The position numbers were made by a program, and so were the translations under genes. Positions 1 to 39,405 of a DNA stretch of 42,071 nt are shown here, piece after piece. The DNA is taken from assembly GCF_000192795.1 (NCBI RefSeq), contig NW_007360653.1, positions 1 through 42,071 on the forward strand. The letters run 5' to 3'. Every line of letters starts with the position of its first letter. Position 1 is the first letter of the stretch. This DNA comes from Vavraia culicis subsp. floridensis (taxonomy: Eukaryota > Microsporidia > Pleistophoridae). The notes under the pieces are model-generated. The model was not told the origin of the DNA. It did no database searches and worked only from the letters and a program-made list of their open reading frames with translations.

Positions 1-642
1 AATTTAAAAACCGCCTCAAAGTATTTTTATGGTCATTTTTTGCTTTTTCCCCTTCTTTCATTGTCTACCTTCACTCTTTATGTTTCGTTGAGTCATCAAA
101 CCATTCTTTAGATTGCCGCTCGGTATCGATACGTAAAATAATTCAAACCTTCAATCAACAACATTGGAATTGTTCAATGTAAAAAAATTATAAAAGCTGA
201 TATTAAGACAGGTAAGAAGACTGGAGTGAATCAACAGCATCAAGTATATTTGTTATAATTGTTTCTTTTTCGTACTAACATTGTGTAAAATGTTTATTTT
301 TAACAACAATAGAAGCCATGAACTAAAACCATCGCGCTACCTAATCGAATTGAACAGCCTGACTTTGCGTTCGCTGTGATTAATCACCATCACTAAGAAT
401 AGAAAGTCTAAATAGCAGCAAAAAATTGTCTGTAAGACAGCAGTCCTGAGGAATTGAATTGGTGAAAGTTTTTGAACCATCTCTGCTAACGAGATGGCTT
501 ACAGCTCGCACGTACTATCGGACCTGAGAAGCGTATCTAATTGTATTACTTCTATTCAATGCTTTATTTGAACACACTAGTACCCGCCTTGGTCTTTAAT
601 TTTGCCTCCAACCATAAACAAATTTGTACTTATCCCTGTAAA
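1..642. other. Leading intergenic region, no gene seen
   Basis: AT-rich sequence without a convincing ORF. A perfect 7-bp hairpin (CCATCTC / GAGATGG, about 478-498) and a small CTGT-AAG-ACAG hairpin near 430 are visible, but nothing identifies them as an RNA gene. The CCC start motif of the next gene lies at 634-636. Confidence 0.5.
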
Positions 643-1008
643 ATGCCGGTAGTAGCCCGAACAAAAGCAGATCTTAACACACAGCTACTTCAGAACACGA
701 ATCATATCAAAATTGTAAGCCATGGCCGCAGATATTTTTCGCATTATTCGGTGATGTTCAATGAATTAGAATATTACCTGTCAAAATTAGCAAAGCTTGT
801 TCTCTACGAAGAATCTGACCTGGATGGTTTACAGTTCTATTTCAACAATAGTTTGGTAAAGGTTGATTGCGGGACGGGTAATACCGAGATTGTAGAATAT
901 GAGCTAAACAAGGAACAATTCATCGAAACGGTCAAAGTTGTGTACATGGCAGCTGCTAATGGCAAAAAGATTGTTTTTATCAATGAGCTGAAGGATATCA
1001 ACCCTTAG
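643..1008 (+). CDS. Hypothetical protein, 121 aa
   Basis: I do not recognise this protein. The frame stays open further upstream, but the ATG at 643 is chosen because a CCC triplet (634-636) sits 6 nt before it, as at most other starts in the window. The product is soluble, with no signal peptide or membrane segment. Mixed polar and hydrophobic spacing suggests an alpha/beta fold, and the C-terminal third (KKIVFINELKDI) reads like a strand followed by a turn. It lies in tandem upstream of the Med27-like gene with a 559-nt gap. It is probably a lineage-specific or very divergent protein; existence as a gene is likely, function unknown. Confidence 0.65.
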   Translation: MPVVARTKADLNTQLLQNTNHIKIVSHGRRYFSHYSVMFNELEYYLSKLAKLVLYEESDLDGLQFYFNNSLVKVDCGTGNTEIVEYELNKEQFIETVKVVYMAAANGKKIVFINELKDINP

Positions 1009-2457: not shown

Positions 2458-2685
2458 TTAAGAATTGTAGCAAATTTGTATCGCTTGTCCATCCAGTACC
2501 TGATACATATTCAATTTAATGTTGTCTCGCATTATAAAATTGTCTTTTTTCAACCCGATTTTGTGTTAATTCACGTTTATCATTTCTTCCAACCTCTTTT
2601 TTAGGTCCTTCACCGTTACCTCGTCATCGATTTTCACGAATACTGTTTTCCCTAGACCATCAGTACACTTCACCGAGATTATCAT
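2458..2685 (-). pseudogene. HUB1: Hub1/UBL5 ubiquitin-like modifier with an in-frame TAA
   Basis: An ATG at 2685 with CCC one base upstream opens a frame of 39 codons (starting MIISVKCTDGLGKTVFVKI). A TAA follows at 2568-2566, and the same frame continues for 35 more codons (HKIGLKKDNF...YNS) to a TAA at 2460-2458. The two halves together align gap-free or nearly so along the whole of Hub1/UBL5 (family: MIEVVCNDRLGKKVRVK..., DLKK, NKIVLKK), and total length (75 codons) matches the usual 73 aa. The stop falls exactly where the family has its conserved Trp before NKIVLKK. Hub1 binds Snu66 in the spliceosome and modulates 5' splice-site use. The conserved second half argues for recent inactivation, readthrough or a sequence error rather than old decay. 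No intron of plausible size would remove the stop. Confidence 0.8.
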
Positions 2686-7862: not shown

Positions 7863-9170
7863 TTAAATCTTCATTCTCTTGGCTGTATCTTCCTCTTCGT
7901 CCTCTTCATCAATACTAAATACGGTAATTAAGGGCGGCTCTGACAGCTCAAAAACAATCCTCGCCTTGTCCAATATAAAGCCTTTGAGTTTTATCTGATT
8001 CTCTTCGGGGATGTCCTTCCCCCCTGTAAAGTCAGGATTCATAAGAAATATTGAAATATCCTCATCTTGGGCCAAATTCGGTTCGTCAGACTGAGAAGCA
8101 CTTATCTCTTTAGCAGCCATGTTTTTATCATTTTTGCCCACATTCTCCTCTTCCTTTACATTTTCTGTAAGCGCTTTCACCTGCGGACATTCGTTTCGTT
8201 CTTCCAATCCATCTTTGCCGTCATTACCGAACTCGCCCACTTCCAATGTTTCCTTTATTTCCTGTTTTTGCCCTTTAATCGATTCATTGCCATTCTTTTT
8301 CTCTTCACCCTCCTCAAACTCACATATTGTCCCTTCATCTACTTGTTTACCACCATTATCCGTCACAAGAGCCTTCATACTTATTTCATCATGAGCTATC
8401 ACCTTGCTCTCATTGCCATCAGCACCATCCTCCTCTCCGCTATCCTCTTCATCCACGGTCTCGATACCCTCATCATCCTCTATTTTCTCATCATCTTCAA
8501 TGCCCTCGTCATCTTCCTCTATTTCCTCATCTTCCTCTATTTCCTCATCATCCTCAATGCCCTCATCATCCTCAATGCCCTCATCATCCTCAATGCCCTC
8601 ATCATCCTCAATGCCCTCATCATCCTCAATGCCCTCATCATCCTCAATGCCCTCGTCAATACTTTCCATCTCACTGCTCTCGTACTTAATCTCATCACTA
8701 TTAATTTCTCTATCTTCTTCATCCTCATATTTCCCAAATTGTTCATTATCTTCACAGGAGGAAACCAAACTTACATCAATATCATCCCTCACGTCCAAAC
8801 ACTCAAGTATTCTGTTTGGTAATCCCGGATAGCTCACATTGACGAAGAAGCCTGCTCTCACAAACTGTCTGCCCCTGAACTTCCCTATGATCACGATGCT
8901 TGTCACGCCAAACATCATTTCTACAGGCACTTTCATGATATCTACGGGTTCAGCACAGAGCGTAAAGCCAAAGCGCCCTTTAGAGAGCGGTCCGACAACG
9001 TCCTCGCTAAGCTTCTGGTCATGTGCATCCTTTTCCGGGTCACCGCAGTATATAATCGTAAACTCCACATCTTGGTTATCCAGATCAGTGTCTATGGTTA
9101 TTTGGAACGGTATTTCATCTCTTATGGAGAACTGCTGTTTTAGTGGTTTGATGGATTTTATTGAGATCAT
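7863..9170 (-). CDS. ASF1: Histone chaperone ASF1 with a large acidic insertion
   Basis: 435 aa against about 155 aa for the conserved ASF1 core. Residues 1-117 match the ASF1 immunoglobulin-like core: IPFQITI, HDQKLSEDVVGPLSKGRFGF (compare HDQ-LD-ILVGPVP-G-NKFVF), then VTSIVIIG and GRQFVRAGFFVNVSY. ASF1 binds H3-H4 and hands it to CAF-1 and HIR during nucleosome assembly. The residues expected next, P-D-F...RNIL...PRVTRF-I, appear only at the C-terminus: NPDF (about 378) and SEPPLITVFSID (about 413-424). Roughly 260 residues, dominated by Asp/Glu and IEDDEG tandem repeats (about 170-245), intervene. In fungi the acidic tract follows the core instead of splitting it. The protein ends in KRMKI, possibly a basic nuclear signal. 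A CCC motif lies 21 nt upstream. Confidence 0.88.
   Translation of the reverse strand: MISIKSIKPLKQQFSIRDEIPFQITIDTDLDNQDVEFTIIYCGDPEKDAHDQKLSEDVVGPLSKGRFGFTLCAEPVDIMKVPVEMMFGVTSIVIIGKFRGRQFVRAGFFVNVSYPGLPNRILECLDVRDDIDVSLVSSCEDNEQFGKYEDEEDREINSDEIKYESSEMESIDEGIEDDEGIEDDEGIEDDEGIEDDEGIEDDEGIEDDEEIEEDEEIEEDDEGIEDDEKIEDDEGIETVDEEDSGEEDGADGNESKVIAHDEISMKALVTDNGGKQVDEGTICEFEEGEEKKNGNESIKGQKQEIKETLEVGEFGNDGKDGLEERNECPQVKALTENVKEEENVGKNDKNMAAKEISASQSDEPNLAQDEDISIFLMNPDFTGGKDIPEENQIKLKGFILDKARIVFELSEPPLITVFSIDEEDEEEDTAKRMKI
8458..8655. repeat. 18-bp tandem repeat inside ASF1
   Basis: Six perfect copies of an 18-bp unit (TCATCATCCTCAATGCCC on the + strand) run from 8545 to 8652. Degenerate copies with 1-3 changes extend back to about 8458. 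In the ASF1 frame each unit encodes six residues (GIEDDE). The perfect copies suggest recent expansion by slippage, and the copy number is likely variable between strains. Confidence 0.95.
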
Positions 9171-28111: not shown

Positions 28112-28331
28112 ATCCGTTCAAGAGAGTAGTCTGAATTCTGTTACGGCAGGACCAACTGCCGCCTTTCGTATTGGACTGCCAACGTAACACACCGATACCT
28201 TCCAAGCAGCCTTGCGGATGCGAACGTTTCTGTTAGACCGGTCAAAGGCGTTAGCCCTTTGCCATCTCAGCTTGTGTGTTCTCAGACCTTCCTAAGGACA
28301 GTGCCCCTAAACGAAAGCTTCTTGAACGGAC
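28112..28331 (-). ncRNA. RNase P RNA
   Basis: On the minus strand the transcript of about 220 nt begins GTCCGTTCAAG and ends CTTGAACGGAT, forming a P1 stem of about 10-11 bp. Near the 5' side it has GGAAGGTCTGAGA (28287-28275), the conserved region I core of eukaryotic nuclear RNase P RNA. Near the 3' side it has AATTCAGACTACTCTC (28137-28122), the conserved region V, which pairs with CR-I to form P4. A middle GCTTGGAA (about 28207-28200) resembles the CR-IV context. The CAGACTACTC element separates it from RNase MRP RNA. The RNA cleaves 5' leaders from pre-tRNAs. It is compact, well below the roughly 340 nt of human H1 RNA. Confidence 0.93.
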
Positions 28332-28361: not shown

Positions 28362-29261
28362 GTAAACGATCGAAGCTGAAGAAAAGCAGTTTAAAAGTAA
28401 AATGCCAGCAGATCCGCGTGATCGTCTCGTTCTTAATGTTTTTTAGTGTCAAACATCCCTTTATACTGAACTGAAGTAATGTTGCAAGGTGGGACATATC
28501 AGGTTGGTGGGAATTTACTGTCGAAATTATATGATGGTTCATTTTAGTGGCTGTATGTCGATTAACACTGTACTAATAGTATATATCAAATTCTTGCTGC
28601 ACATATTATGTTTTTGGGAATAGCACGCCGTACAAAACACTGTTCTTGAACGTCAAACCATTTCGTACTATAATGCAAAATAAATATTAAATTGATTGCT
28701 TTACACCAATCTGTTCATATACAGGCCAGAACCATCGGTATTTGAGGTGAAATCACAAAAAATGAAGAGCAAGCTGCAATATTTTGATAAAAACTGTAAC
28801 TCTTGAAGAGAATTAACAAAGAAAGCGATGAAAATGAAAGTAAATGAAGAAAAACTCCAAGATTTCTTAAACATGCTGATGCACTTAGATCGACTGAACG
28901 TACAAGAATACAACAACAGGAATGATTACCAACCGAGACGATGATGCATCGCCACTATAGGAAATTTTAGTGAGCAGAGCAATCGCTACACTATTCCTTG
29001 ACAAAGAAGATCAGTTAAAGCAATTGACATCATAAGTAACCATCTGATCCAAGGAGCAAGCTCTTTAAGATGCCTTAATTGAACATGTTCATTGAATTTA
29101 GATTTGTTTAACTGTTTTCTTAGTTGAAGATTTATCTGCATTTTAATACGATATCAGTAGAAAATAAAAGATAATTTGATTTTTTGACTTATTATTGTGC
29201 CTCATTTTAAGCAAAATATTCATATTTAGTCATCAAATTATACATTTAATAACTAAACACA
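28362..29261. other. Intergenic region
   Basis: About 900 bp of AT-rich sequence with only spurious open frames, ending at the left boundary of the inverted repeat. Confidence 0.5.
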
Positions 29262-30461
29262 TATATTAAGCTATTACATTAACTCATCTGATTTTATTGA
29301 AAATCATGCTGTCTATTCACTCTAAAACCTTTTGTACGGTCCTACCAACCTAATCCTGTTCACATGCTACGTCCTTAATTATTCACTGTCACTGCTCAAT
29401 TTCGCCTGTTTTACTCCGATTTTCAGCCCAGCCCCCATGCCTGACTACGTGCTCACCCCCCCGGAGAAAAAACATGCTCTGATAAAACTGAACGAGTACC
29501 CAAGAACAAATCCTAACAAGTCATTTGATCCATCGGTCGAGCAGACAACTCCACAGACACTGTTCACTCCGCTTCTGCGCGTGTGCAACGTAGAGCTGAC
29601 GAAGCGGATCATAACGAGCACTGTAACGGAGGTGGAAACATCCGGGAAAGCGGAGGCCGTCCCGTGGCTGCGCAAATTTGCGTTTGACATGGGGAACAGA
29701 GTCGCCAAGGACGAGAACATAAGAATGAGGGAACTGGACAAGATCAGGAAGCCGATCGACTACAATCAGTTCTATCTCGAGTCGTTCGTGAGTGTTGACG
29801 AGGGACTGGAGGGATGCACGAGCTACGATTTCGTGCCGGGCGACGAGAAATACATGATCTTTGATTTTGATGAAAGAAATTTTGCGGTGAAGGAGATGAA
29901 AGACTTTGTGCTGGAGTATCCGTCACGGGTCGTTATTGATAGGAATGGGGAGGAGGCTGAGTATGGATGCAATGCCAATGATATGAGTAACTACGTGCTG
30001 GTTGAGGTGAAGGATGACAGGGCATACTACTATTTACTGAAGAACAGTCTCAAGCTGAAGCGCCTGAAGACACATCACAATTCGAGCGAACAGAGCTAAA
30101 CAGTGAGCCGGTGAGTGTGTGACCTGGAGGCATGCGGCTTGTATTTGTGCCGTTGCACACCCGTTTTAATGATCATGAGACAGCCTGTAGCGTATATCTG
30201 TGAATTAAAGTATGTTGCACGCTCATTTTATGTTTTGCGAATTGCTGCTGTGTTATGAGCTGAGATGCTCTGCTGTTTGGAGTGAAGAATCGTGTGAATG
30301 CCTTGGAACTACCAATTTGAGGTATGGGCAGGCACAGACCGATCTGAGAAATGAGGAATTTCCTCAACTAAAATTTAGTTTTTATGATGTGATCATAGAG
30401 GATGCAAACTGCCAGGAGATGAGTGGTTTGTACGATTTACGAGTCGATTTGCTCGATGCAT
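29262..30461 (+). repeat. 1,200-bp inverted repeat, left copy
   Basis: This segment reappears in reverse orientation at 36479-37678. Boundaries were set where the two copies diverge (outer edge TATATTAAGC, inner edge GCTCGATGCAT). Both encoded ORFs translate identically and the non-coding segments I compared base by base are identical. It contains about 175 bp upstream, the complete PAF1-like gene and most of a second ORF. The copies are 6,017 bp apart. Confidence 0.96.
29437..30099 (+). CDS. PAF1-like transcription elongation complex protein, copy 1
   Basis: 220 aa from the ATG at 29437 (MPDYVLTPPEKKH), directly preceded by CCCCC; the longer open frame from 29332 is rejected because it lacks the motif. 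The N-terminal third has SFDP and LFTPLL, then AVPWLRKF (about 74-81), which resembles the VPWMRKTEYI element of PAF1. The C-terminal third (SNYVLVEVKDDRAYYYLLKNSLKLKRLK) resembles the PAF1 ending, where a strand is followed by YYNELETRVRLSKRR. PAF1 scaffolds the Paf1 complex on elongating RNA polymerase II and supports histone modification. Length is well below other PAF1 proteins (over 400 aa), so it would be a minimal version. Assignment is tentative; the gene itself is well supported by two intact copies. Confidence 0.55.
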   Translation: MPDYVLTPPEKKHALIKLNEYPRTNPNKSFDPSVEQTTPQTLFTPLLRVCNVELTKRIITSTVTEVETSGKAEAVPWLRKFAFDMGNRVAKDENIRMRELDKIRKPIDYNQFYLESFVSVDEGLEGCTSYDFVPGDEKYMIFDFDERNFAVKEMKDFVLEYPSRVVIDRNGEEAEYGCNANDMSNYVLVEVKDDRAYYYLLKNSLKLKRLKTHHNSSEQS

Positions 30462-35115: not shown

Positions 35116-35719
35116 TTTCTCGAGGGTGAAAAATTTTGTCAAAATAAAAAATAAGCTGCTTTACACACGTCTGAACAGGTGAAGAGCAGCTAAAGTTGAA
35201 AACAAGCTGACAATTACTGTCTGTATGGTGAATTAATTACCAATCGAAACATTTTAGAAATATTAAGAGGTTATTTTCTGCTATTTTTGTTCACTACAGA
35301 ATGTCAAAAGCCTTTACAGCGATTTCCCGCTATAATAATGCAATTTGTGCGTTATGGATTACGACTGAATGTCTATTTCACGAGAGTATAGAACGATTTG
35401 TGGTCTCAGAAGAATTTAATTGCAAACAGAATAAATCACGCTTAGTCCTGAAATATGGTGCAACTCCTTGTATTTATGTGTTAACACGTTCTTGTAGAAC
35501 ATTATTCTTTGTGCGCGTGGAGCCTTAAAAAAGGTATAGAACAGTAAAATACAAACGATTATCTCCATATGACTGAAGGGCAATATACGGAGTTTGTGCC
35601 ATTGATAAAGTATGATTAAGCGAAATGAATATTTCATTCTCGTTGATTCTCCGATTTTCATTTTATATCTTTCTTATGTCAACTACGATAAATCATTGAA
35701 AAACGTCCGCCCTTGTTCC
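35116..35719. other. Divergent promoter region between P2 and SUMO
   Basis: About 600 bp containing the CCC motifs of both flanking genes (35124-35126 minus, 35710-35712 plus) and a candidate minus-strand micro-gene at 35416-35568, listed separately. Confidence 0.5.
35416..35568 (-). CDS. Candidate small membrane protein, 50 aa
   Basis: An ATG at 35568 has CCC 9 nt upstream (35580-35578) and opens 50 codons beginning MEIIVCILLFYTFF, a hydrophobic start like a signal anchor, then a basic tail (RAQRIMFYKN). An overlapping plus-strand ORF competes. Only the start motif and hydrophobicity support it. Confidence 0.3.
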   Translation of the reverse strand: MEIIVCILLFYTFFKAPRAQRIMFYKNVLTHKYKELHHISGLSVIYSVCN

Positions 35720-36001
35720 ATGTCAACATCTTTGCCAGGTAAGGAAGAGGAGAGCAGCCATAGGAAGTACGTCAAAATTACACTTGCTGATAATGAAGGC
35801 AACCAGATAGAATACAAGGTGAAGCGCCACATACCATTCGGTAAAATAGTTGAGTTGTATGCCAGCAGCAATAACAAGAAAGCCAGTCAGCTCAGACTGA
35901 GCTGGAAAGGACGGCCAGTGCAAATTACCGACACAGCGGACTCTCTTGAAATGGAAGATGAGGAAGAAATGGAGATTGTTGCACCACAGGTGGGCGGTTG
36001 A
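35720..36001 (+). CDS. SMT3: SUMO (Smt3-like), mature C-terminus encoded directly
   Basis: 93 aa from the ATG at 35720, with CCC 7 nt upstream; the open frame extends 36 codons further up without a start motif. A disordered acidic N-terminus (1-15) precedes the ubiquitin fold: YVKITLADNEGNQIEYKVKR (strands 1-2), IPFGKIVELYAS (helix), LRLSWKGRPVQITDTADSLEMEDEEEMEIV. The last residues are VGG followed at once by TGA. Most SUMO precursors carry a few residues after the diglycine that an Ulp protease removes; this one needs no such step. SUMO is conjugated to lysines of nuclear proteins by Aos1-Uba2 and Ubc9. A GGTAAG at about 35738 looks like a 5' splice site, but the frame is continuous. Confidence 0.93.
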   Translation: MSTSLPGKEEESSHRKYVKITLADNEGNQIEYKVKRHIPFGKIVELYASSNNKKASQLRLSWKGRPVQITDTADSLEMEDEEEMEIVAPQVGG

Positions 36002-36478: not shown

Positions 36479-36728
36479 ATGCATCGAGCAAATCGACTCG
36501 TAAATCGTACAAACCACTCATCTCCTGGCAGTTTGCATCCTCTATGATCACATCATAAAAACTAAATTTTAGTTGAGGAAATTCCTCATTTCTCAGATCG
36601 GTCTGTGCCTGCCCATACCTCAAATTGGTAGTTCCAAGGCATTCACACGATTCTTCACTCCAAACAGCAGAGCATCTCAGCTCATAACACAGCAGCAATT
36701 CGCAAAACATAAAATGAGCGTGCAACAT
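36477..36728 (-). CDS. Unknown 83-aa ORF, second copy at the repeat edge
   Basis: Same protein as the ORF at 30212-30466 up to residue Ala83; here the flanking sequence supplies a TGA immediately at the repeat boundary. Finding a stop at the break in both copies means neither end need be original. Confidence 0.3.
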   Translation of the reverse strand: MLHAHFMFCELLLCYELRCSAVWSEESCECLGTTNLRYGQAQTDLRNEEFPQLKFSFYDVIIEDANCQEMSGLYDLRVDLLDA

Positions 36729-37678
36729 ACTTTAATTCACAGATATACGCTACAGGCTGTCTCATGATCATTAAAACGGGTGTGCAACGGCACAAATACA
36801 AGCCGCATGCCTCCAGGTCACACACTCACCGGCTCACTGTTTAGCTCTGTTCGCTCGAATTGTGATGTGTCTTCAGGCGCTTCAGCTTGAGACTGTTCTT
36901 CAGTAAATAGTAGTATGCCCTGTCATCCTTCACCTCAACCAGCACGTAGTTACTCATATCATTGGCATTGCATCCATACTCAGCCTCCTCCCCATTCCTA
37001 TCAATAACGACCCGTGACGGATACTCCAGCACAAAGTCTTTCATCTCCTTCACCGCAAAATTTCTTTCATCAAAATCAAAGATCATGTATTTCTCGTCGC
37101 CCGGCACGAAATCGTAGCTCGTGCATCCCTCCAGTCCCTCGTCAACACTCACGAACGACTCGAGATAGAACTGATTGTAGTCGATCGGCTTCCTGATCTT
37201 GTCCAGTTCCCTCATTCTTATGTTCTCGTCCTTGGCGACTCTGTTCCCCATGTCAAACGCAAATTTGCGCAGCCACGGGACGGCCTCCGCTTTCCCGGAT
37301 GTTTCCACCTCCGTTACAGTGCTCGTTATGATCCGCTTCGTCAGCTCTACGTTGCACACGCGCAGAAGCGGAGTGAACAGTGTCTGTGGAGTTGTCTGCT
37401 CGACCGATGGATCAAATGACTTGTTAGGATTTGTTCTTGGGTACTCGTTCAGTTTTATCAGAGCATGTTTTTTCTCCGGGGGGGTGAGCACGTAGTCAGG
37501 CATGGGGGCTGGGCTGAAAATCGGAGTAAAACAGGCGAAATTGAGCAGTGACAGTGAATAATTAAGGACGTAGCATGTGAACAGGATTAGGTTGGTAGGA
37601 CCGTACAAAAGGTTTTAGAGTGAATAGACAGCATGATTTTCAATAAAATCAGATGAGTTAATGTAATAGCTTAATATA
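36479..37678 (-). repeat. 1,200-bp inverted repeat, right copy
   Basis: Reverse complement of 29262-30461, apparently identical throughout. Sequence beyond 37678 and before 36479 is unrelated to the flanks of the left copy. There are no obvious terminal inverted repeats or target-site duplication, so a transposon is unlikely. Confidence 0.96.
36841..37503 (-). CDS. PAF1-like transcription elongation complex protein, copy 2
   Basis: 220 aa, identical in sequence to the protein at 29437-30099, with the same CCCCC directly before the ATG and about 175 bp of shared upstream DNA, so both copies should be expressed. See copy 1 for the reasoning behind the tentative PAF1 assignment. Confidence 0.55.
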   Translation of the reverse strand: MPDYVLTPPEKKHALIKLNEYPRTNPNKSFDPSVEQTTPQTLFTPLLRVCNVELTKRIITSTVTEVETSGKAEAVPWLRKFAFDMGNRVAKDENIRMRELDKIRKPIDYNQFYLESFVSVDEGLEGCTSYDFVPGDEKYMIFDFDERNFAVKEMKDFVLEYPSRVVIDRNGEEAEYGCNANDMSNYVLVEVKDDRAYYYLLKNSLKLKRLKTHHNSSEQS

Positions 37679-39405
37679 CGTTTCTAATGGTCTGATATTT
37701 CTCTGACTACTTTTTTATGTTACCGTGAATTATTTGAACTTTCGTGTGTTCCTTAATGGTAGTTTGAGGGCCAACTTTGGAGCAAAGTTACGTCTTTTTG
37801 TACCATCGAAAGATACGAACTACGATTAAATAATTTACTTCTAACAAAAATTCAAATACACATGAAACGATGAAAGTCTAAATTACAACATTATCGTAGC
37901 AATAATACCAAGTACAAAACCATGTGGCGCTCTCACGATTTACATTTTTAAACATGTCTTGCTTCAGCTATATCAGAAACATTGAAATGAGATATGATAT
38001 AAAAACAAAACTGGAGTCAACTAAATGTTTGTTCCTCTTTTACTCCCGCTTGTAACTTGCGTACCAAGCATGGAAGGCTATCATAACATGACACCTGCAA
38101 TGAGTACATATAAGTTGGCCAGAGAAACAATTAACCTTTATAATGAGTTTTACGCAAGAAAAAGTCGCAGAAAAGATGATTTTGAGCACAGAATAAAATG
38201 AAAACTAATAATATAAAAGTAGAAATGGTGTTGTCTTTATAAGCACACATGTAGGTAAAAAAATATTATGGTCTAACATTGTAGCGTTTATTTCGCCAAT
38301 TATTCATATATTTAGCTGCATACACAAGCTAAGTAGTTATTTATGTTCTCATGCTCTTATACACTCTACAGATTTGTGTTTAGATTGAGCTTGTGTGATT
38401 TTTGATCAGTACATGATAAACGAATCAAGTAAACAAAGTGATCATGATTTTACATTTGACCTCTTCTTGCTTACCACATCCTTAAAAACATGTTATGACT
38501 ACAGATCGTAGTTCCGGCTACTGCCATGTATTAGCAATATCCCTAGTACCGATGTATATTAATGATGATAAATACCGAAATGTGTCAGGCATCAAGAACA
38601 ATTAACTACAAGAACAGCGACTTTTTTGACCAAAGGCCTTTATTATCACTTCGTAGAACCAGTTGGACTAAGAAATTCTTATGATCTGCTGAGATTGGTC
38701 CTGGCATCTACCTTTAGTTGATGCGATAACATCGGAGGTGGTTCGAAATTCTATAATGTTCTGTTGTTCACATCCACACAATGAAATGTGTTTATGTTCT
38801 GCGTGCCAAAATGGCTTATCCGTTCGCTTTGGCAGTACCAATAGATAAAAATATATGAGCTGCAGTTCTTTACTACGTCATAGGCAAGCGATGTGATTGG
38901 CAATTGCAGACCTGACACGAGACACGGTTTATAATGGTGATATGCACAACAACAATAACATAGCAAAGCATACCAATAAATATCCGTAGACACAGGTATA
39001 AATCAGGATCATTACGACACTACGAACAAAATACTGTCATATAGAACAAAATAATTAAGTCATTCGAAGTATTAGTCGACAAAAAATACGGTCCAAAAAT
39101 CAACTATGCATCTCATATTTCTTCTCATTAACAATAATAACCGTTGATTAAAGGGGATATTTTATTCAACGCGGACATAGAATGGTAAAAAATTTGAAAG
39201 GCAAAATGAAGACATAGGCAAAGGCACTCATTTCGTAAGATTCTAAAATATAATACATCAATAACCTAGCATCTTCAAGAAGAAAAGAAATAGGTGCACA
39301 ATTTCGATTTGTACTGCGCCAAAAGAAAGGAGTTGCTCGCATGTCGCTCGTTTGATATTAGCTTTATATTTGTTTGTTTGACGGCCAACAAGCACTTCAT
39401 TCCTA
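37679..39405. other. Gene-poor region
   Basis: About 1.7 kb, AT-rich. Short open frames (for example 38751-38993 minus) have no start motif or recognisable content. Confidence 0.5.

What the first reader, a model, noticed from the sequence alone, without database searches (positions are those of the whole stretch)
2458..2685. Hub1/UBL5 with a stop codon exactly at its conserved Trp
The frame reads as Hub1 over its whole length, but a TAA (2568-2566) replaces the Trp that precedes N-K-I-V-L-K-K in the family. Everything after the stop (HKIGLKKDNF...) is still clearly Hub1, so selection acted until recently. Options: recent pseudogenisation, which would fit weakening of the spliceosome; programmed readthrough; a truncated 39-aa product; or a sequencing error. 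TAA is used as a normal stop elsewhere in the window (for example ASF1), so code change is unlikely.
Basis: partly seen in the sequence, partly recalled or inferred. Interest (0 to 1): 0.8.

Follow-up and report, generated by a model that had tools for sequence, protein, structure and literature searches.

The report
Splicing gene Hub1 with premature stop
In a microsporidian parasite genome the one copy found of a small splicing gene, Hub1, carries a stop signal in its middle while close relatives have an uninterrupted gene; this is most likely a very recent loss of a gene the parasite can spare, or else a one-base assembly mistake, and not a new way of reading the genetic code.

Summary
In detail: frame 2685->2458 (-) encodes a full-length divergent Hub1/UBL5-like protein with one TAA at codon 40 (2568-2566), and no second locus was found in the 5.63-Mb genome. 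The 'conserved Trp' part is wrong: yeast Hub1 has Pro there, and the four uninterrupted relatives found have Gln (97% identical protein), Asp (Trachipleistophora hominis), Glu and Met. The stop hit a variable position and is absent from the closest relative. Code change is rejected: all three stops end genes, 1 of 77 conserved-domain matches holds an internal stop (TGA, in a decayed kinase), eRF1 looks canonical, and none of 50 detected tRNAs has a stop anticodon. Intron and programmed readthrough are not supported. U6, Prp8 and Prp38 are present and a Dib1-like gene lies near Hub1, so splicing machinery persists. The Asp that contacts the HIND peptide and one Tyr of the di-Tyr end differ in all four relatives and the window. 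Best reading: a recent nonsense allele of a gene under weakened constraint in an intron-poor parasite (0.6). Assembly error or an unassembled intact haplotype (0.27) stays open, as raw reads were not available. Modest interest.

The parts
2458..2685 (-). Divergent Hub1/UBL5-like frame, 75 codons plus terminal TAA, interrupted at codon 40
2566..2568 (-). Internal TAA, codon 40; relatives have Gln, Asp, Glu or Met there
2569..2685 (-). 39 codons before the stop; by the model of the relative P0001 this half holds strands 1-2 and the helix
2458..2565 (-). 35 codons after the stop plus terminator, still aligned with relatives over the full length
559..1008 (+). Dim1/Dib1-like (U5 snRNP 15-kDa) open frame, recognisable only at residues 82-140 of 149; context gene, one ORF (1568-2119 +) lies between it and Hub1

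Best explanation
A divergent Hub1/UBL5 gene, single locus, in a microsporidian related to Trachipleistophora, hit very recently by one nonsense mutation. Translation should end after 39 residues and leave about half of the ubiquitin-like fold, so the allele is most likely null. Shown: the stop, one locus found, uninterrupted relatives, no other stop or indel in the frame, core spliceosome genes present. Inferred: that the base is real, that the allele is null, and that it is tolerated because Hub1 does little where introns are few and because this clade's Hub1 had already changed at the HIND-contact position.
For: One internal stop and no indel over 75 codons. Closest relative P0001 differs at 2 of 75 residues, one being the stop, so the lesion is young. 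All 4 relatives found are uninterrupted. The window's kinase differs from an unnamed near-identical protein at 6 of 708 residues; of 4 that outgroups polarise, 1 is derived in the window and 3 in the other, which looks like real strain divergence, not a window full of errors. The position aligned with human Asp22 is Val, Val, Val, Lys, Leu (window, P0001, P0002, P0003, P0116) and the di-Tyr end is Cys-Tyr or Gly-Tyr. Hub1 is dispensable in intron-poor S. cerevisiae and essential in S. pombe (PMC4141198 passages; PMC10216172 passages). Vavraia culicis: introns in 27 genes, median splicing efficiency 25.3% (PMC4435813 passages).
Against: No raw reads; I saw P0001 only as a protein, from an unnamed source. 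The frame outside the stop is well conserved to T. hominis (84%), so the gene was under selection until recently. U6, Prp8 and Prp38 persist. Human Hub1 D22A still complemented splicing defects, perhaps less well, so loss of that Asp does not prove loss of function. A kinase on C6 split over two frames shows that other single-site lesions of unknown origin exist in the assembly.
Confidence: 0.6

Rival explanations
1. Assembly or base-call error, or a nonsense allele in one haplotype of a diploid or tetraploid with the intact allele not assembled.
For: One base decides; no reads seen. A C6 kinase is split over two frames. Other microsporidian assemblies have been characterised as diploid or polyploid (PMC12558613, abstract). 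Nearly identical P0001 is uninterrupted.
Against: Of 115 adjacent in-frame ORF pairs in 242 kb 0 look like a gene cut by a stop at 5 bits (sensitivity about 0.65 on long ORFs; Hub1 itself is too short for this screen); 0 frameshift candidates, sensitivity not measured; 76 of 77 domain matches hold no stop. Only one copy of the locus DNA in the assembly.
Confidence: 0.27
2. The UAA is read through, by basal misreading or a dedicated element, and full-length Hub1 is still made at low level.
For: The 35 codons after the stop remain intact. Near-cognate misreading of UAA by Gln-tRNA in yeast is recalled, not looked up beyond a listing.
Against: The stop is absent from all 4 relatives found; the 90 nt after it fold no better than shuffles (z -0.76, 44 of 200 at least as good); UAA followed by C ends 4 of 93 sampled ORFs; none of 50 tRNAs is a suppressor by anticodon; preferred leaky contexts (recalled) are not matched.
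Confidence: 0.07
3. An intron removes the stop, a changed code makes it sense, or the 39-residue product is functional.
For: Frame-preserving GT..AG pairs spanning the stop exist, the shortest 75 nt.
Against: Each such pair would delete at least 25 codons that relatives keep as protein. 41 of 93 sampled ORFs end in TAA, eRF1 keeps NIKS and YMCDSRF, no stop anticodon in 50 of 50 tRNAs. The half-protein lacks the strands after the helix.
Confidence: 0.04

Closest known systems
Hub1/UBL5 (S. cerevisiae YNR032C-A, human UBL5)
   Same: Best solved-structure matches by sequence; length 75 against 73; no di-Gly end; fold model of relative P0001 nearest to Hub1 structures
   Different: Interrupted at codon 40; Val at the Asp22 position; Cys-Tyr instead of Tyr-Tyr; no recognisable HIND partner found, though that search had no working control
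T. hominis ubiquitin-like protein P0002 and unnamed P0001, P0003, P0116
   Same: Clear orthologues by full-length identity, 97, 84 and 67% to the window and 59% (P0116) to P0001
   Different: All four uninterrupted
Lineage-specific loss of splicing components in microsporidia (PMC4435813, passages)
   Same: Few introns, reduced component set, repeated losses
   Different: There absence is scored across species; here a single site differs from a nearly identical relative

Membership tests
Hub1/UBL5 | Best sequence similarity to Hub1/UBL5 among ubiquitin-like proteins | tested here: met
   6 of 7 PDB sequences at E<=1e-3 for the window frame, 6 of 6 for P0001; no dedicated Pfam model rang, only generic ubiquitin-like ones below or near cut-off
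Hub1/UBL5 | Ubiquitin-like fold | tested here: met
   Model of relative P0001, mean pLDDT 81 in the best of five models, about 38 in the other four; 5 of 7 PDB chains at E<=1e-3 are Hub1. Not folded for the interrupted frame
Hub1/UBL5 | Short C-terminus without di-Gly | tested here: met
   Ends ICYNS
Hub1/UBL5 | C-terminal di-Tyr motif (PMC8431670 passages) | tested here: not met
   Cys-Tyr in window, P0001, P0002, P0116; Gly-Tyr in P0003
Hub1/UBL5 | Asp22 that contacts HIND (PMC4141198, PMC6857937, passages) | tested here: not met
   Val at the aligned position; neighbouring Glu might stand in. Hence filed as divergent, Hub1-like
Hub1/UBL5 | HIND-bearing partner (Snu66 or Prp38) in the genome | tested here: inconclusive
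   PF03343 and PF19252 no match, but no control shows that the search finds eukaryotic members; Prp38 ORF is only 152 aa
Recent nonsense pseudogene | Premature stop, otherwise intact frame, intact close relative | tested here: met
Recent nonsense pseudogene | Lesion present in the organism's reads | not testable with these tools
   No raw reads
Reassigned stop codon | Same codon in frame in many conserved genes, matching tRNA, altered release factor | tested here: not met
Programmed readthrough | Stop conserved among relatives with coding sequence after it | tested here: not met
   0 of 4 relatives have the stop

The most novel reading that the evidence does not exclude
The parasite still makes full-length Hub1 by misreading this UAA, so that the amount of a splicing cofactor is set by translational leakiness in a lineage on the way to losing it.
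Probability: 0.07. Interest if true: 0.7.

Novelty: new member of a known kind. Interest (0 to 1): 0.3.

Why it matters
If the base is real, two nearly identical microsporidian lineages differ by the presence or absence of one splicing cofactor. That would make it testable whether a very reduced spliceosome needs Hub1, and it fits the yeast contrast (dispensable where introns are few, essential where they are many). If it is an error, it is only a caution for annotation.

Tried and rejected
Code change: rejected. Intron: rejected. Readthrough element: no support. Second Hub1 copy: none found. An apparent in-frame TAG in Prp38 is that gene's own terminator; my note, which suspected otherwise, is superseded. 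The TGA in a C31 kinase match lies in a decayed gene. DNA of relatives in viral contigs: 5 pattern matches, none confirmed. My codon screen cannot see Hub1 itself: it needs 40 codons on each side, and Hub1's halves score 14.7 and 1.0 bits.

Papers: microsporidia+Hub1+spliceosome 0; microsporidia+spliceosome+Snu66 0; microsporidia+UBL5 1, listing only; Hub1/Snu66/HIND/UBL5 23 held, 12 listed, passages of 4 read; T. hominis/V. culicis/intron 3 listed, passages of 2 read; Vavraia genome assembly 6 listed, passages and abstract of 1 seen, no source for this genome found; readthrough 55 held, 8 listed, none opened.

Full report
Observation. The minus-strand frame 2685-2458 reads 75 codons with one internal TAA at codon 40 (2568-2566) and then its own TAA. 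With X at the stop it matches human UBL5 over its whole length without a gap; of 7 distinct PDB sequences with E<=1e-3, 6 are UBL5/Hub1 (best E 1.2e-9) and one is a Dsk2. The genome that holds the window (G000, 5,626,998 bases, 80 contigs; the window is all of contig C50) has one place matching this protein, and 601 bases of DNA around it match only themselves.

Relatives. A search of about 5.8 billion proteins gave three relatives, and a profile of those gave one more: P0001 (97%, unnamed), P0002 from Trachipleistophora hominis (84%), P0003 (67%, unnamed) and P0116 (59% to P0001, unnamed). All 4 are uninterrupted. At codon 40 they have Gln, Asp, Glu and Met; yeast Hub1 has Pro there and human UBL5 Trp. 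The premise that the stop sits on an invariant Trp is therefore wrong. P0001 differs from the window frame at two of 75 residues, the stop and residue 55; at residue 55 the window has Asn, as has P0003, while P0001, P0002 and P0116 have His. I saw only the protein of P0001, not its DNA.

How close is P0001's source? The window's protein kinase is identical at 702 of 708 residues to P0004, another unnamed protein, and 84% identical over 80% of its length to T. hominis. That P0001 and P0004 come from the same organism is an inference. Of the six kinase differences, outgroups polarise four: one is derived in the window and three in P0004. This is what two real, slightly diverged strains look like and not what a window full of base errors would give.

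Is TAA read as sense here? In 242 kb (first 100 kb of C1 and of C2, with 11,147 N in C2, and the window) 93 ORFs of at least 150 codons without N end in TAA (41), TGA (32) and TAG (20); one further ORF with N was dropped. Of 115 adjacent in-frame pairs, 0 look like one gene cut by a stop at 5 bits or more, with sensitivity about 0.65 by random splitting of the long ORFs that also trained the score, so an optimistic figure; at 3 bits one short pair appears. Hub1 itself is too short for this screen: its halves score 14.7 and 1.0 bits. A screen for frameshifts, of unmeasured sensitivity, found 0. Genome-wide, 77 matches to kinase, DEAD and AAA domains (34, 23 and 20; matches, not genes) contain one internal stop, a TGA. 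That match lies in a kinase whose first half is not recognisable in the same frame, which I read as decayed. eRF1_1 matched two places; the one I read, which I take as eRF1, has NIKS and YMCDSRF (meaning of these motifs recalled). 50 tRNA genes scored over the cut-off; ARAGORN read all 50, including Gln TTG and CTG, and none has a stop anticodon. As only the best candidates are scored, 50 is a lower bound.

Intron and readthrough. All frame-preserving GT..AG pairs that span the stop are 75 nt or longer and would delete at least 25 codons that relatives keep as protein. The 90 nt after the stop fold no better than shuffles (z -0.76). The stop is absent from all four relatives found. Modest basal misreading cannot be excluded.

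Spliceosome. U6 RNA, a Prp8 central domain in an open frame of 1932 aa and a Prp38 ORF of 152 aa are present. A Dim1/Dib1-like ORF lies 1.45 kb from Hub1 with one ORF between them, and is recognisable only at residues 82-140 of 149. Snu66 (PF03343) and HIND (PF19252) gave no match, but no control shows that these searches would find divergent eukaryotic forms. I did not test introns in this genome. In Vavraia culicis introns were reported in 27 genes with median splicing efficiency 25.3% (PMC4435813, passages).

State of Hub1 in this clade. The residue aligned with Asp22, which makes the salt bridge to HIND (PMC4141198, passages), is Val in the window, P0001 and T. hominis, Lys in P0003 and Leu in P0116. 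The di-Tyr end (PMC8431670, passages) is Cys-Tyr or Gly-Tyr. Human Hub1 D22A still complemented splicing defects, perhaps less well, so this does not prove loss of function. The model of P0001 (mean pLDDT 81 in the best of five models, about 38 in the others) has 7 PDB chains at E<=1e-3, 5 of them Hub1; a stop after residue 39 would leave two strands and the helix.

Interpretation. The simplest reading is a recent, private nonsense allele in a single-locus gene whose constraint had weakened; Hub1 is dispensable in intron-poor S. cerevisiae and essential in S. pombe. The main rival is a wrong base or a hidden intact haplotype. The C6 kinase split over two frames shows that other single-site lesions of unknown origin exist in this assembly, and other microsporidian assemblies have been characterised as diploid or polyploid (PMC12558613, abstract). 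I put the first at 0.6 and the second at 0.27. Either way the finding is of modest interest: no new decoding and no new family.

Noticed in passing
window 29254-30461 and 36479-37686: A perfect inverted repeat of 1208 nt, arms 6017 nt apart, each arm with an identical 220-aa ORF without a Pfam match: a very recent duplication, gene conversion or assembly feature.
   Followed up: partly
G000:C6:158088-158845 (-), locus L076: A kinase domain split over two reading frames that overlap by about 10 bases: recent lesion, frameshift or assembly error.
   Followed up: partly
G000:C31:2961-3473 (-), locus L075: A CDK-like kinase remnant with an internal TGA and no recognisable first half in the same frame; looks like a decayed gene.
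   Followed up: partly
window 28115-28328 (-): Nuclear RNase P RNA (RF00009, 83.2 bits).
   Followed up: no
window 35612-36001 (+): A SUMO-like protein ending in Gly-Gly, Pfam Rad60-SLD over cut-off: an intact ubiquitin-like gene in the same window.
   Followed up: no
window 8434-8670, inside the ASF1-like gene 7863-9170 (-): An array of mostly 18-nt units that encodes an acidic repeat tract in the ASF1-like protein.
   Followed up: no
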